DNA from: Candidatus Hebobacterum abditum
GTDB lineage: Bacteria > Armatimonadota > Hebobacteria > Hebobacterales > Hebobacteraceae
Length of the DNA stretch: 64,000 nt
Assembly: GCA_029821875.1 (NCBI GenBank)
Contig: JALGXW010000005.1
Span: 1-64,000 of the forward strand
Direction: 5' to 3'
The notes under the pieces were generated by a model. That model was not told the DNA's origin and made no database searches. It saw nothing but the letters and a program-made list of their open reading frames with translations. Below, piece after piece: positions 10,391 to 27,625 of the stretch. The position numbers and the translations under genes were made by a program. Positions within the stretch are counted from its first letter, which is position 1; every line of letters begins with the position of its first letter.

Positions 10391-11860
10391 TTGGCCGATA
10401 TCATCCTCAGTCGCGAGAAGTACCGCGACAAAGTCTATGCGTGCTGGCTTGGGAAGAACATCGGGAGCACGCTGGGCGCGCCCTTCGAGGGCCACAAGTA
10501 CGTCAATGATCTGACCTTCTACGATCCCGTGCCGAGCGAACCATCGGCAAATGACGATCTGGACCTTCAACTCGTATGGCTGTGCCTGCTGGAGGAGAGA
10601 GGGACAGACCTCAGCCTGGCCGACTTCGCCGAGTACTGGCAGCGCTACCTGATGGCCTACCCGTGGGACGAGTACGGGTTCTGCGCCCGGAACTTGGAGC
10701 GCGGCCTCATGCCGCCGATGAGCGGGTGGTTTGAGAACTACTATGTCGATCAGATGGGTTCGCCGATCCGCAGCGAGCTGTGGGCGTGCATCGCGCCGGC
10801 CGATCCCCAGCGGGCGGCCGCGCTCGCCTGGATGGACGCTGTGATGGATCACGCGGGTGGGGAGGGGGTGTGGGGGGAGATGTTCTGGGCGGCTGTCGAG
10901 AGCGCCGCCTTCGTGATGGATGATCCGCAGACGCTCATCAACATCGGGTTGCACATGATCCCGCCGTCCTGCCACATCGCGCGGGTGATCCGCGAGGCGG
11001 TGTGGTGCTTCGAGAGCGGGAAGCGGTGGGCGGCGGCGCGGGAGCGTATCGAGAGGATCTACGGGCACGAGCATCCGTGCAACGCGATGCCGAACCACGG
11101 CTTCACGATACTCGGCTGGCTGTATGGGAATGACTATGGCGAGCGGCTCTGTCGGGCCGTCAACTGCGGCTATGACACGGACTGCACCGGCGCGACGCTC
11201 GGGTCGCTGCTTGGGATCATCGGCGGCACGAGCGCGATCCCGAAGAACTGGAGTGACCCCGTCGGGACCGGGATCGTGCTTCACAAGTTCACGGGCGACA
11301 TCGCGGCACCGAAAGACGTCGAGGAGTTGACCGATCGAACCGCGGCGATGGCGAACCGGTTCGCCGAGGTGGAGCGGGCGCGGGCGGCTTTCGGCGAGGA
11401 GAGCAGTCTGCCTTCGGACTTGCTGTCCTTGCTCTATCGCAACGAGGAGGCCGAGGAGGCCAGGGCGCGAGACGTGCGGTGTGCGGTCGCCCGGGATCGC
11501 GACATGGAGATCACGCTGCACTACCACGGCGGCCCGGTCTTCGAGCCGGAGATCGCGCGCAGGCTCAGCGTCAGCTGCCGCAAGACCGGCATGGCGGCGC
11601 ACGCTCGCGCACGGCTCACTGCTCCGCCTGGTTGGGGCGTCACCGAAGCCGATAAGGGGCGATTCGAGGTCACCCCGCCGAAGTTCGAGGGTGTTCAGGG
11701 AGTCGGGATAGAGGCCGAGATCGACGGCGCGGGCTACTCGGCGGAGTTCGCCGTACTCAGCCCATCGGAGGCGCGTGGGTTCCCGAGCCTCCAGAACGTA
11801 GAGCACTGCCTCGTCTGTCAGGGCCGGCAAGGCTCCTGCCTCTGCGAACGGAGTGGGTGA
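10391..11860 (+). CDS. ADP-ribosylglycohydrolase family protein
   Basis: A 489-residue protein with the metal-binding blocks of the family: ANDDLDLQL near residue 53, replacing the usual TDD start, and GYDTDCTGATLGSLLG near residue 257. It probably hydrolyses an ADP-ribosyl or related N-glycosidic bond in the cytoplasm, but many family members have unknown substrates. The C-terminal 150 residues form an extra domain beyond the catalytic fold. The start is a TTG with GGAAGGAGG about 8 bases upstream. The gene ends 8 bases from the convergent sulfatase gene. Confidence 0.85.
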   Translation: MADIILSREKYRDKVYACWLGKNIGSTLGAPFEGHKYVNDLTFYDPVPSEPSANDDLDLQLVWLCLLEERGTDLSLADFAEYWQRYLMAYPWDEYGFCARNLERGLMPPMSGWFENYYVDQMGSPIRSELWACIAPADPQRAAALAWMDAVMDHAGGEGVWGEMFWAAVESAAFVMDDPQTLINIGLHMIPPSCHIARVIREAVWCFESGKRWAAARERIERIYGHEHPCNAMPNHGFTILGWLYGNDYGERLCRAVNCGYDTDCTGATLGSLLGIIGGTSAIPKNWSDPVGTGIVLHKFTGDIAAPKDVEELTDRTAAMANRFAEVERARAAFGEESSLPSDLLSLLYRNEEAEEARARDVRCAVARDRDMEITLHYHGGPVFEPEIARRLSVSCRKTGMAAHARARLTAPPGWGVTEADKGRFEVTPPKFEGVQGVGIEAEIDGAGYSAEFAVLSPSEARGFPSLQNVEHCLVCQGRQGSCLCERSG

Positions 11861-19360: not shown

Positions 19361-19390
19361 TTGACTCGGCAGCCGACCGCGAGCTAGGAT
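19361..19390 (+). promoter_or_regulatory. Promoter for the ART-like gene
   Basis: TTGACT (19361-19366) and TAGGAT (19385-19390) are 18 bases apart. The predicted start near 19397 is only about 5 bases before the ATG at 19402, so the transcript may be leaderless. Confidence 0.5.
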
Positions 19391-19401: not shown

Positions 19402-20253
19402 ATGGCACGACGAGCAGAGACCAAGCTATCCCGACGCCGACTGCTCCGCAGGATGAAGGCGGATGAGTTGCTGCGCGGGCCCAAGTGGGAGTGGGACTTC
19501 CTACACATCGCGGATGCCTACGCGGCGCGGCAGCAGCACCGCGGCGATGTCTCTCTGAACGATTTCGCGGTCGAACACGGCGCGCTGGCCTCCGCACTCT
19601 ATGAGAGGACGAAGGGCAACGGCCTGGTTCTGTGGCACGGGACCAGCGTCTCTCGGGCCGCCAAGATCCTGGAGCACGGCTTCGCCCACTACAAGGGCGT
19701 GTGGATGGCGTTCGGGACGAGCACGCCCCTCGGCTTCGCGAGAAACCGCGCGGCCGAGTCCGAGGGCCGCCCCGCCATCCTCATCAGTGTCATTGATCTG
19801 GATGTGTTTCAGCCGGGTGTCCACTTCGACGCAGCCGCGGACGTCCGGTTCCGGGCTGACGTGCCGCCCGAGGTCGTCCAGTATATGCTCACCGACAGGG
19901 AGTTCCGCTATGTGGGCAGCGGTCGAGTACCACGGCATCGGCTCCCGGCGAAGGCGAAGTTCGTCCGGAAGGGCGGCCGCTGGGTCGTGCCATCGCAGAA
20001 CCCGGCGACGTTCGACGCGCGGCAGGGCCTAACGTACACGACCGCGAGCGAATGGCTGGACCTTAAGCTGAGCAGGTTCTTCGCTGGCCGAGGTCGTGCA
20101 ACTCCGTTGGAGGCGTTCTGCTCAGTCTACGCGAACTGCACGCCTACGGCGGCACTCCCCCGAGAGACCGTCCTCGACTGGCTGATCGAGCACTGCGAGG
20201 TGGTAGCGCAGAGCCGCTGGGGTCCGTTGCTCCACATGGTCGCGAGGGCGTGA
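19402..20253 (+). CDS. Unrecognised protein with ADP-ribosyltransferase-like HGT motif
   Basis: I do not recognise a named family. The 283 residues are soluble and very basic at the N-terminus (four Arg-rich turns in the first 20). The stretch LVLWHGTSVSRAAKIL at residues 75-90, then EHGF, matches the pattern of PARP, KptA and other ART-fold proteins, in which the His of HGT binds NAD. Downstream, WMAFGTSTPLGFARN and AILISVIDLDVF resemble the following ART strands. A catalytic Glu cannot be placed with confidence. No signal peptide is present. A start at Met18 is possible. The function is unknown; ADP-ribosyl transfer is a hypothesis. Confidence 0.6.
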   Translation: MARRAETKLSRRRLLRRMKADELLRGPKWEWDFLHIADAYAARQQHRGDVSLNDFAVEHGALASALYERTKGNGLVLWHGTSVSRAAKILEHGFAHYKGVWMAFGTSTPLGFARNRAAESEGRPAILISVIDLDVFQPGVHFDAAADVRFRADVPPEVVQYMLTDREFRYVGSGRVPRHRLPAKAKFVRKGGRWVVPSQNPATFDARQGLTYTTASEWLDLKLSRFFAGRGRATPLEAFCSVYANCTPTAALPRETVLDWLIEHCEVVAQSRWGPLLHMVARA

Positions 20254-26776: not shown

Positions 26777-27625
26777 CTAGCCGCCCGCGGTGGTGGATGC
26801 GGAGGAGGCTCGGAGGGAGTCATGCTGCGGTGGCGGCGGGGGCGCGGTCTGTCCGGGCTGGCGCCACCGGAAGACGATGTGGACCGGCGCCTTGCCGCGG
26901 ACGACATGTCCGCCGTCGCAGTTCACCGCGGTGTGAACGGGCAACTCCTTCTGCATGAAGTCGGCCAGCCGCCAGATGTCCGATCTTCCCTGGACGATGA
27001 AGATGTAGTCGGGGCTCATCCCGAGCGCCATGCGGTCGGTGACCCTGTTCATGAAGGCGGTTGAGAAGCCATCGCGCTGAAGCACGGGAGCCAGCCTTTG
27101 TCCGAGCGCCAGGGCGTTCACTCCCGGCGCGTGCTTCAGCGTGCCGTAGTCGCCGGAGAGATCGACGCTGCCATCGCCCATGATGGCGAAGAACCAGCGG
27201 CCCGTGGTGGCACTGGACAGGATGCAGCCATCGACCTGATAGAAGTCGGCCAGAGCCATTGATATTGAATGGTGGAAAGCGCCCGTGGAAACGGCGACTC
27301 CGTCAAGGCGCTCCTTCGCCTCTTCCTTGGTCTCGCCCCGCCGGTGGTAGGCGATGACGGCCTCCATGTGCTCACATCGGGGAAGCTGAATCACGCGGAA
27401 GGTGCGCCGTCGGTGCTTTGTGAGCCACACCTTGACCATGTGGCGCGGGTGCTCCTGTGCGGTCGAGGTGTCCGCGGCGGCAATGCCTGACAGCGTGGCG
27501 CCGGCGGAGGGAGAAGATGGGGCACGCGACGGCAGTGGGTTACGGTGCGCTGGCATCACAGGCGGCACCAGCAGCATCGCTACTACCAGAGATAGAACAC
27601 AACCGGCTTGGCGCATGGCCCTCAT
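26777..27625 (-). CDS. Exported protein, phosphodiester glycosidase (NAGPA)-like
   Basis: 282 residues with a signal peptide at 5-26. The mature part has VSTGAFHHSISM near 112, a Gly-rich GRWFFAIMGDGSVDL near 140 and HTAVNCDGGHVV near 232. The last resembles the DGG motif of phosphodiester glycosidase/NAGPA domains (usually NLDGGGS), but the following Ser/Thr is missing, so the assignment is tentative. The C-terminal tail is Pro-rich. The TTG-free ATG at 27625 or the ATG three codons later are both possible starts. It converges on panB. Confidence 0.5.
   Translation of the reverse strand: MRAMRQAGCVLSLVVAMLLVPPVMPAHRNPLPSRAPSSPSAGATLSGIAAADTSTAQEHPRHMVKVWLTKHRRRTFRVIQLPRCEHMEAVIAYHRRGETKEEAKERLDGVAVSTGAFHHSISMALADFYQVDGCILSSATTGRWFFAIMGDGSVDLSGDYGTLKHAPGVNALALGQRLAPVLQRDGFSTAFMNRVTDRMALGMSPDYIFIVQGRSDIWRLADFMQKELPVHTAVNCDGGHVVRGKAPVHIVFRWRQPGQTAPPPPPQHDSLRASSASTTAGG

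What the first reader, a model, noticed from the sequence alone, without database searches (positions are those of the whole stretch)
19402..20253. Candidate ADP-ribosyltransferase-like protein with a probably leaderless transcript
LVLWHGTSVSRAA at residues 75-87 fits the NAD-binding His-Gly-Thr strand of PARP/KptA/ART proteins, and the Arg-rich N-terminus suggests nucleic acid contact. The promoter at 19361-19390 predicts a start about 5 bases before the ATG. I cannot place the catalytic Glu. An ADP-ribosylglycohydrolase lies 8 kb away but is not linked.
Basis: partly seen in the sequence, partly recalled or inferred. Interest (0 to 1): 0.55.

Follow-up and report, generated by a model that had tools for sequence, protein, structure and literature searches.

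The report
Tpt1-like ADP-ribosyltransferase, accessory gene
This bacterial gene makes a real, rarely found protein whose middle part resembles the NAD-binding half of the RNA-repair enzyme Tpt1/KptA, but it lacks that enzyme's RNA-binding half, so what it modifies is unknown.

Summary
The ORF at 19402-20253 is a real gene (dN/dS 0.20-0.24 against its two close relatives) and residues 75-87 read LVLWHGTSVSRAA. The ART call holds up. A 4-row profile matches KptA over the whole NAD lobe (score 48.7; 100 shuffled controls at most 24.0) and bacterial PARPs more weakly (34.6; at most 22.9). Tpt1 chains are its best hits among PDB sequences, though not significant alone (E 0.065). His79 is kept in 4 of 4; the second-motif position is Trp101. 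On the Tpt1 alignment the third strand has no Glu; a low-confidence PARP alignment points to invariant Glu167. Tpt1's RNA lobe and Arg-His-Arg-Arg tetrad are missing, so it is not a Tpt1. Structure models were unusable. "Leaderless" is unproven: the promoter match is real, but of 9 such matches before 215 genes it is the only one within 20 nt of a start, and the genome shows Shine-Dalgarno signals and no leaderless signature. Full-length members were found in 4 of 291 phylum genomes, in differing neighbourhoods; one lies behind a PARIS-like gene pair. Most likely an accessory NAD-dependent ART of unknown acceptor.

The parts
19402..20253 (+). gene for the KptA/Tpt1-like ADP-ribosyltransferase-fold protein, 283 aa
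   Evidence: open frame; relatives at 87%, 69% and 31% identity; dN/dS 0.20-0.24 against the two close ones
19402..19482 (+). Arg-rich N-terminus, residues 1-27
   Evidence: 10-11 R/K of 27 in three relatives, 5 of 27 in the distant one, whose row lacks its first residue
19612..19899 (+). NAD-lobe-like ART core, residues 71-166
   Evidence: hhalign to 28 KptA proteins: 92-93 columns, probability 87-92%, column-shuffled controls at most 4.7%
19636..19644 (+). His79-Gly80-Thr81, first ART motif
   Evidence: invariant in 4 of 4; aligned to the KptA and PARP HGT/HGS
19687..19689 (+). His96, where KptA has the conserved Arg before VHLS (Tpt1 Arg121 on my reading)
   Evidence: invariant in 4 of 4; conserved R..VHLs in KptA; residue roles from passages of PMC6333775; placing both here is by eye and my inference
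19702..19704 (+). Trp101 at the second ART motif position (His in KptA, Tyr in PARP)
   Evidence: G-V/L-W-x-A invariant in 4 of 4; aligned to G-[VI]-Y-F of PARP; the match to the KptA VHLS His is by eye
19843..19872 (+). third-strand region V148-R149-F150...V-P-P-E157, without a conserved Glu at the catalytic place
   Evidence: aligned to KptA NGVWL..VPP and to a Tpt1 chain with NVRI..VPPD; E157 is E,E,D,D in the four rows
19900..19902 (+). Glu167, invariant Glu at the end of the core; candidate catalytic Glu if the enzyme is PARP-like
   Evidence: invariant in 4 of 4; falls near the PARP catalytic Glu only in a forced, low-confidence extended alignment
19969..20250 (+). C-terminal region, residues 190-283, perhaps helical, no family match
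   Evidence: aligned in all 4 rows; no Pfam match there; helices only in a low-confidence model
19361..19390 (+). promoter-like TTGACT-18-TAGGAT, 11 nt before the ATG
   Evidence: only hit in 2001 bases, 0.1 expected; 29 of 30 bases kept in L003, but the rest of the intergene is 76 of 87, p=0.29; not seen in L005 by eye

Best explanation
The gene encodes an accessory, NAD+-using ADP-ribosyltransferase-fold enzyme whose core is a free-standing version of the Tpt1/KptA NAD lobe, set between an Arg-rich N-terminus and a C-terminal region of its own. His79 and Thr81 would hold the ADP-ribose half of NAD+ and Trp101 would pack on the nicotinamide side; nicotinamide leaves and ADP-ribose goes to an acceptor held by parts outside the lobe. 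Shown: gene reality, homology of the core, conservation of His79 and Trp101, absence of Tpt1's RNA-lobe motifs and tetrad, patchy distribution in the phylum. Inferred: that it is active, that it uses NAD+, and the roles of the residues. Unknown: the acceptor (nucleic acid, small molecule, protein or water).
For: hhalign of the 4-row core to 28 KptA proteins gives score 48.7 over 93 columns, against mean 14.1, sd 2.5, maximum 24.0 in 100 column shuffles, and 16.0 reversed. To 9 bacterial PARPs 34.6 (maximum 22.9), and to a HEAT-repeat ART-like family of the same phylum 56.7 (maximum 22.0). Leaving out the distant row changes little for KptA (48.1). A profile search of all PDB sequences returned Tpt1 chains as the 3 best of 5 hits (E 0.065-0.068). 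NCBIfam RNA 2'-phosphotransferase is sub-threshold at E 0.054 for the window protein and 0.0062 for L005. Pfam PARP is sub-threshold in all 4 (E 0.00028-0.0031). Motifs invariant in 4 of 4.
Against: No database search is above a curated cut-off or significant alone. L003 and L008 gave no NCBIfam 2'-phosphotransferase hit at E 0.1; L008 also has a chance-level Lactamase_B match (E 0.02). Single-sequence PDB searches gave one irrelevant hit each. The KptA profile is deeper than the PARP one (Neff 3.6 against 2.75), which may favour it. Structure prediction was unusable, and Foldseek on the core model showed no ART. The family is 4 full-length sequences, 3 of them close. Without a placed third catalytic residue, an inactive or merely binding ART fold is possible.
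Confidence: 0.68

Rival explanations
1. A PARP-like H-Y-E transferase in which Trp replaces Tyr and Glu167 (in DREFRYVG) is the catalytic Glu, modifying a protein or nucleic acid directly.
For: PARP is the only Pfam match of the window protein. HGT and GVWMA line up with HGT and GVYFA of bacterial PARPs. Glu167 is invariant in 4 of 4 and falls near the PARP Glu when the alignment is forced to extend.
Against: PARP similarity is weaker and shorter than KptA similarity; the confident part stops before the Glu; PF00644 matches only profile positions 29-69 of 199 in the window protein.
Confidence: 0.2
2. A degenerate, non-catalytic ART fold that binds NAD+, ADP-ribose or an RNA end as a sensor.
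For: No acid at the third motif on the KptA alignment; Trp at the second motif; no Tpt1 tetrad.
Against: HGT is invariant and the gene is under purifying selection; [quoted passage not shown]
Confidence: 0.15
3. A true RNA 2'-phosphotransferase (Tpt1/KptA) that has diverged.
For: Closest named family by profile.
Against: No LRH.P and no RA..GHS motif of the RNA lobe; His96 where KptA has the conserved Arg. PF01885 has no match at E 0.001 in this genome.
Confidence: 0.04

Closest known systems
Tpt1/KptA RNA 2'-phosphotransferase (PF01885), NAD lobe
   Same: HGT motif, following helix, a G..F....V....VPP ending, order and spacing over 93 columns
   Different: no N-terminal RNA-lobe motifs, no Arg-His-Arg-Arg tetrad, Trp instead of His in the second motif (by eye), extra N-terminal and C-terminal regions
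bacterial PARP-type proteins (PF00644)
   Same: HGT/HGS motif and G-[VI]-[YW]-[FM]-A strand
   Different: no confidently placed catalytic Glu; only a sub-threshold Pfam score
HEAT-repeat ART-like proteins of the same phylum (e.g. L002:700-1773, -)
   Same: HGT, V-W-F-A, and a V-P-V ending; best profile score of the three
   Different: the ART-like part is at the N-terminus and HEAT repeats follow (Pfam-tested in L002 only); no Glu in the third strand

Membership tests
ART superfamily | profile similarity of the NAD-binding core beyond chance | tested here: met
   scores 34.6-56.7 against maxima of 22.0-24.0 in 100 shuffles each
ART superfamily | first-motif His conserved | tested here: met
   His79 in 4 of 4
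ART superfamily | ART fold in a confident structure | tested here: inconclusive
   pLDDT 35.3 and 48.6; Foldseek without ART in the rows shown
Tpt1/KptA | N-terminal RNA lobe with LRH and RA..GHS motifs | tested here: not met
   motifs conserved in the 28 KptA proteins are absent from the N-terminal part; RNA lobe as in PMC6333775 passages
Tpt1/KptA | Arg-His-Arg-Arg tetrad | tested here: not met
   three members lie in the missing lobe; the fourth position reads as His96 by eye
Tpt1/KptA | NCBIfam or Pfam score over the curated cut-off | tested here: not met
   13 bits against a cut-off of 231; PF01885 has no match at E 0.001 in G000
PARP / H-Y-[EDQ] clade | Tyr in the second motif and Glu/Asp/Gln in the third | tested here: inconclusive
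   Trp101 in place of Tyr in 4 of 4; Glu167 a candidate only on a low-confidence alignment
PARP / H-Y-[EDQ] clade | Pfam PF00644 over cut-off | tested here: not met
   19.4 bits against 26.7
PARIS (AriA-AriB) defence system, as a third part | constant linkage to an AAA-TOPRIM pair | tested here: not met
   linked in G246 only; the TOPRIM-like protein of that locus has no match at E 0.001 in G000, G195 or G196
leaderless gene | mapped 5' end at or within a few nt of the start codon | not testable with these tools
   no transcript data; only positions of consensus matches

The most novel reading that the evidence does not exclude
A lineage of ARTs made from the Tpt1 NAD lobe without its RNA lobe, with an H-W-x instead of an H-H-h or H-Y-E active site, has become a free-standing effector that is sometimes coupled to a PARIS-like AAA-TOPRIM sensor (G246) and elsewhere works alone against phage or plasmid nucleic acid.
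Probability: 0.08. Interest if true: 0.6.

Novelty: new member of a known kind. Interest (0 to 1): 0.33.

Why it matters
PMC6333775 (passages) proposes that Tpt1 arose by fusing a specialised NAD lobe to a specialised winged-helix domain. A family with a Tpt1-like NAD lobe and no RNA lobe is the kind of relative that could show what such a lobe does alone. The family found here is small and its acceptor unknown, so this is a modest lead.

Tried and rejected
Full-length AlphaFold2 on 3 sequences and core only, residues 66-176: both below usable confidence; Foldseek of the core model gave only meaningless matches. Viral contigs: 27 stretches matched a pattern of the 4-row alignment and 4 a pattern of the G246 protein, none confirmed as a relative. 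Phage and plasmid records: no match for either protein. PHROGs and PADLOC: no match for the window protein. PDB by single sequence: one irrelevant hit each for the window protein (E 1.1) and the G246 protein (E 1.3). The G213:C517 match (L009) lies in the frame of an unrelated long ORF and was dropped as chance; the G168 match with stops inside was dropped too. A first extraction of PARP and KptA proteins took the wrong strand for many loci; it was replaced.

I considered Glu157 as the PARP catalytic Glu because its spacing to Tyr170 looked like PARP's (by eye). I rejected it: it is Asp in two of four relatives and aligns with the variable VPP-x residue of KptA and Tpt1. I considered linkage to the ADP-ribosylglycohydrolase: rejected, other genes lie between. 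I considered a later start at Met18 (which would give a leader of about 57 nt): unlikely, because that codon is Leu in L005 while Met1 aligns. I considered the ART as a regular third gene of AAA-TOPRIM pairs: 9 other genomes have a (partial) match to the TOPRIM-like protein and none of them appears with a family member, so the link rests on one locus.

Full report
What is there. The ORF 19402-20253 (+) encodes 283 aa and holds LVLWHGTSVSRAA at residues 75-87. The window is the first 64 kb of contig C100 of a 4.3-Mb genome (identity checked). Relatives named by record title are a Candidatus Hebobacteria MAG (the same contigs as G196, 'same genus' as the window's genome) and an Armatimonadota MAG, so the phylum is Armatimonadota. 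The gene is real: dN/dS is 0.24 against L003 (87% identity) and 0.20 against L005 (69%). Against the distant G246 relative (31%) it is 0.55, with dS 1.45 and so little weight. The gene's GC3 of 0.820 is normal for the 217 genes that a simple script called in 320 kb of the genome (mean 0.804, sd 0.066).

Distribution. Of 291 genomes of the phylum searched with the protein and with a 4-row profile, 4 hold a full-length member: G000 (the window), G196, G195 and G246. In many genomes the profile search scored only the best 8 candidates. G196 holds two versions, one of them cut by a contig end and identical to the window over 206 residues, which may reflect a mixed MAG. Shorter matches (about 63 to 96 residues around the HGT motif) in G000, G195, G197, G198 and G213 belong to a separate family; HEAT repeats were found by Pfam in the one member tested, L002. 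Two other short matches were dropped as chance (G213:C517, G168). Nothing was found in phage, plasmid or viral collections. Other phyla were reached only by one genome-contig scan with exact 8-residue patterns, which finds close relatives (3 loci, all of this phylum). Wider occurrence is therefore untested.

Neighbourhood. In the window the gene lies between a divergent endonuclease/phosphatase-family gene and a downstream aldo/keto reductase gene. In L003 the endonuclease-family gene is kept upstream (82% identity; the sulfatase beyond it by eye) and a URO-D-family gene stands before the aldo/keto reductase. In L005 the gene follows two GNAT genes by 27 nt and precedes a sigma-70/ECF-type gene. 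G197 and G198 have the aldo/keto reductase but no full-length family member; in G198 the stretch upstream of it holds other ORFs. This is the pattern of an accessory gene. In G246 the gene is the third of a same-strand run: an AAA_21 ATPase (best PADLOC matches PtuA; AriA also), 14 nt on a gene with a partial AriAB match (E 1.9e-8, residues 55-132), then the ART 54 nt on. That second gene has no Pfam match; I call it TOPRIM-like from the AriAB match only. Partial relatives of it occur in 9 other genomes, none of which is among the matches, so the association rests on one locus.

What the protein is. Pfam PARP matches all four relatives below its cut-off (E 0.00028 to 0.0031). NCBIfam RNA 2'-phosphotransferase matches the window protein (E 0.054) and L005 (0.0062), not L003 or L008. 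To settle this I collected 28 KptA proteins and 9 PARP-type proteins of the same phylum (of 30 KptA loci, L071 and L072 were not used) and compared profiles. With the ART core (columns 61-200 of the 4-row alignment) the scores were 48.7 for KptA (93 columns; residues 71-166), 34.6 for PARP and 56.7 for the HEAT-repeat family (4 of 5 members used). One hundred column shuffles each gave maxima of 24.0, 22.9 and 22.0, and the reversed profile gave 14.6-16.0. As a yardstick, KptA against PARP itself scored only 28.9. The KptA profile is deeper than the PARP profile (Neff 3.6 and 2.75), so the difference between the two should not be over-read. A profile search of all PDB sequences gave five hits at E up to 10, the first three being Tpt1 (E 0.065-0.068; profile positions 72-160, including RFRADVPPDVV against RIVERVPPDCI). 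Single-sequence PDB searches found nothing relevant. Each database result is weak; together with the shuffled controls they make ART homology firm and Tpt1/KptA the closest named family over the whole lobe.

Active site. His79, Gly80 and Thr81 are invariant in the four rows, as is Trp101 in G-V/L-W-x-A. Trp101 stands where PARPs have Tyr and, by eye, where KptA has the His of VHLS. The third strand on the KptA alignment is V148-R149-F150 with no conserved acid; Arg149 is invariant. Glu157 is Glu or Asp and aligns with the variable VPP-x residue of KptA. Glu167 is invariant; only a forced, low-confidence extension puts it near the PARP Glu. The clade names H-H-h, H-Y-[EDQ] and R-S-E, and the statement that the H-H-h clade mostly acts in RNA repair, on small molecules and in making soluble ADP-ribose derivatives, come from passages of PMC9503650. 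Placing this protein nearer H-H-h is my inference; the Trp makes it fit neither profile exactly. From passages of PMC6333775: Tpt1 has an RNA lobe (1-85) and an NAD lobe (86-182) in the Clostridium enzyme; its essential tetrad is Arg18, His19, Arg68 and Arg121. The window protein has no RNA-lobe motifs, and by eye His96 stands where KptA has the conserved Arg before VHLS, which I take to be Arg121. It is therefore not a Tpt1, although its core would work like a Tpt1 NAD lobe.

Structure. Foldseek on the core gave 447 matches at E up to 10, none at 0.001 or better, and no ART among the 50 rows shown. This test neither supports nor refutes.

N-terminus and start. The first 27 residues hold 10-11 R/K in the three close relatives and 5 in G246, whose row starts at its second residue. 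The promoter-like site is the only one in 2001 bases (0.1 expected) and ends 11 nt before the ATG. Among 215 gene starts in 320 kb of the genome, 9 such sites lie within 150 nt upstream: 7 at 20-39 nt, one at 80-89 nt, and this one, the only one under 20 nt. TANNNT ends at -5 to -14 in 1.9% of the 215 starts against 8.4% at -25 to -34, while Shine-Dalgarno-like words occur in 45.6% against 14.0% in a control stretch. Starts were chosen by a simple rule, so these figures are rough. The site is kept in L003 (29 of 30 bases), but so is most of the intergene (76 of 87; Fisher p 0.29). In L005 it is not seen at the aligned place, and GGGAGG stands before the ATG. A leaderless transcript is possible, would be unusual for this genome, and is not shown.

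Literature. Listings only were seen for: ART classification terms (26 papers, 15 listed), Tpt1 active site (5), ADP-ribosyltransferase with HEAT repeat and KptA (1), Armatimonadota/Hebobacteria (357, 10 listed), and AriA/AriB/PARIS/TOPRIM/ADP-ribos (10). PARIS with ADP-ribosyltransferase, TOPRIM, AAA ATPase and anti-phage gave none. Passages of two papers were read (PMC9503650, PMC6333775). I recognised no listing as describing this family. These searches are narrow, and most subscription papers are not held.

Noticed in passing
L002:700-1773 (-), genome contig C37; also L026, L027, L028, L029: A second ART-like family (HGT, VWFA, VPV) occurs in this genome and four others of the phylum; the member tested (L002) has HEAT repeats behind it and a sub-threshold NCBIfam RNA 2'-phosphotransferase match (E 0.0072).
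   Followed up: partly
L013:10670-13638 (-): In G246 the distant relative is the third gene of a tight same-strand run after an AAA_21 ATPase and an AriAB-matching (TOPRIM-like) gene, like a PARIS system with an added ART.
   Followed up: partly
L031-L038, L042: Nine PARP-family (PF00644) proteins over the curated cut-off occur in 8 of 291 genomes of the phylum, with an alignable N-terminal region (by eye); the 14 control genomes had none.
   Followed up: no
L003:5708-6369: The aldo/keto reductase gene of the related MAG matches in two separate pieces with a TGA reported in the first, at the end of a contig, while the window copy is whole; a real break or an assembly error.
   Followed up: no
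window 26777-27625 (-): A 282-aa ORF with no Pfam match at E 0.001, next to a ketopantoate hydroxymethyltransferase gene.
   Followed up: no
window 10391-11860 (+): An ADP-ribosylglycohydrolase-family protein (PF03747, E 5.6e-40, residues 17-285 of 489), not linked to the ART.
   Followed up: partly
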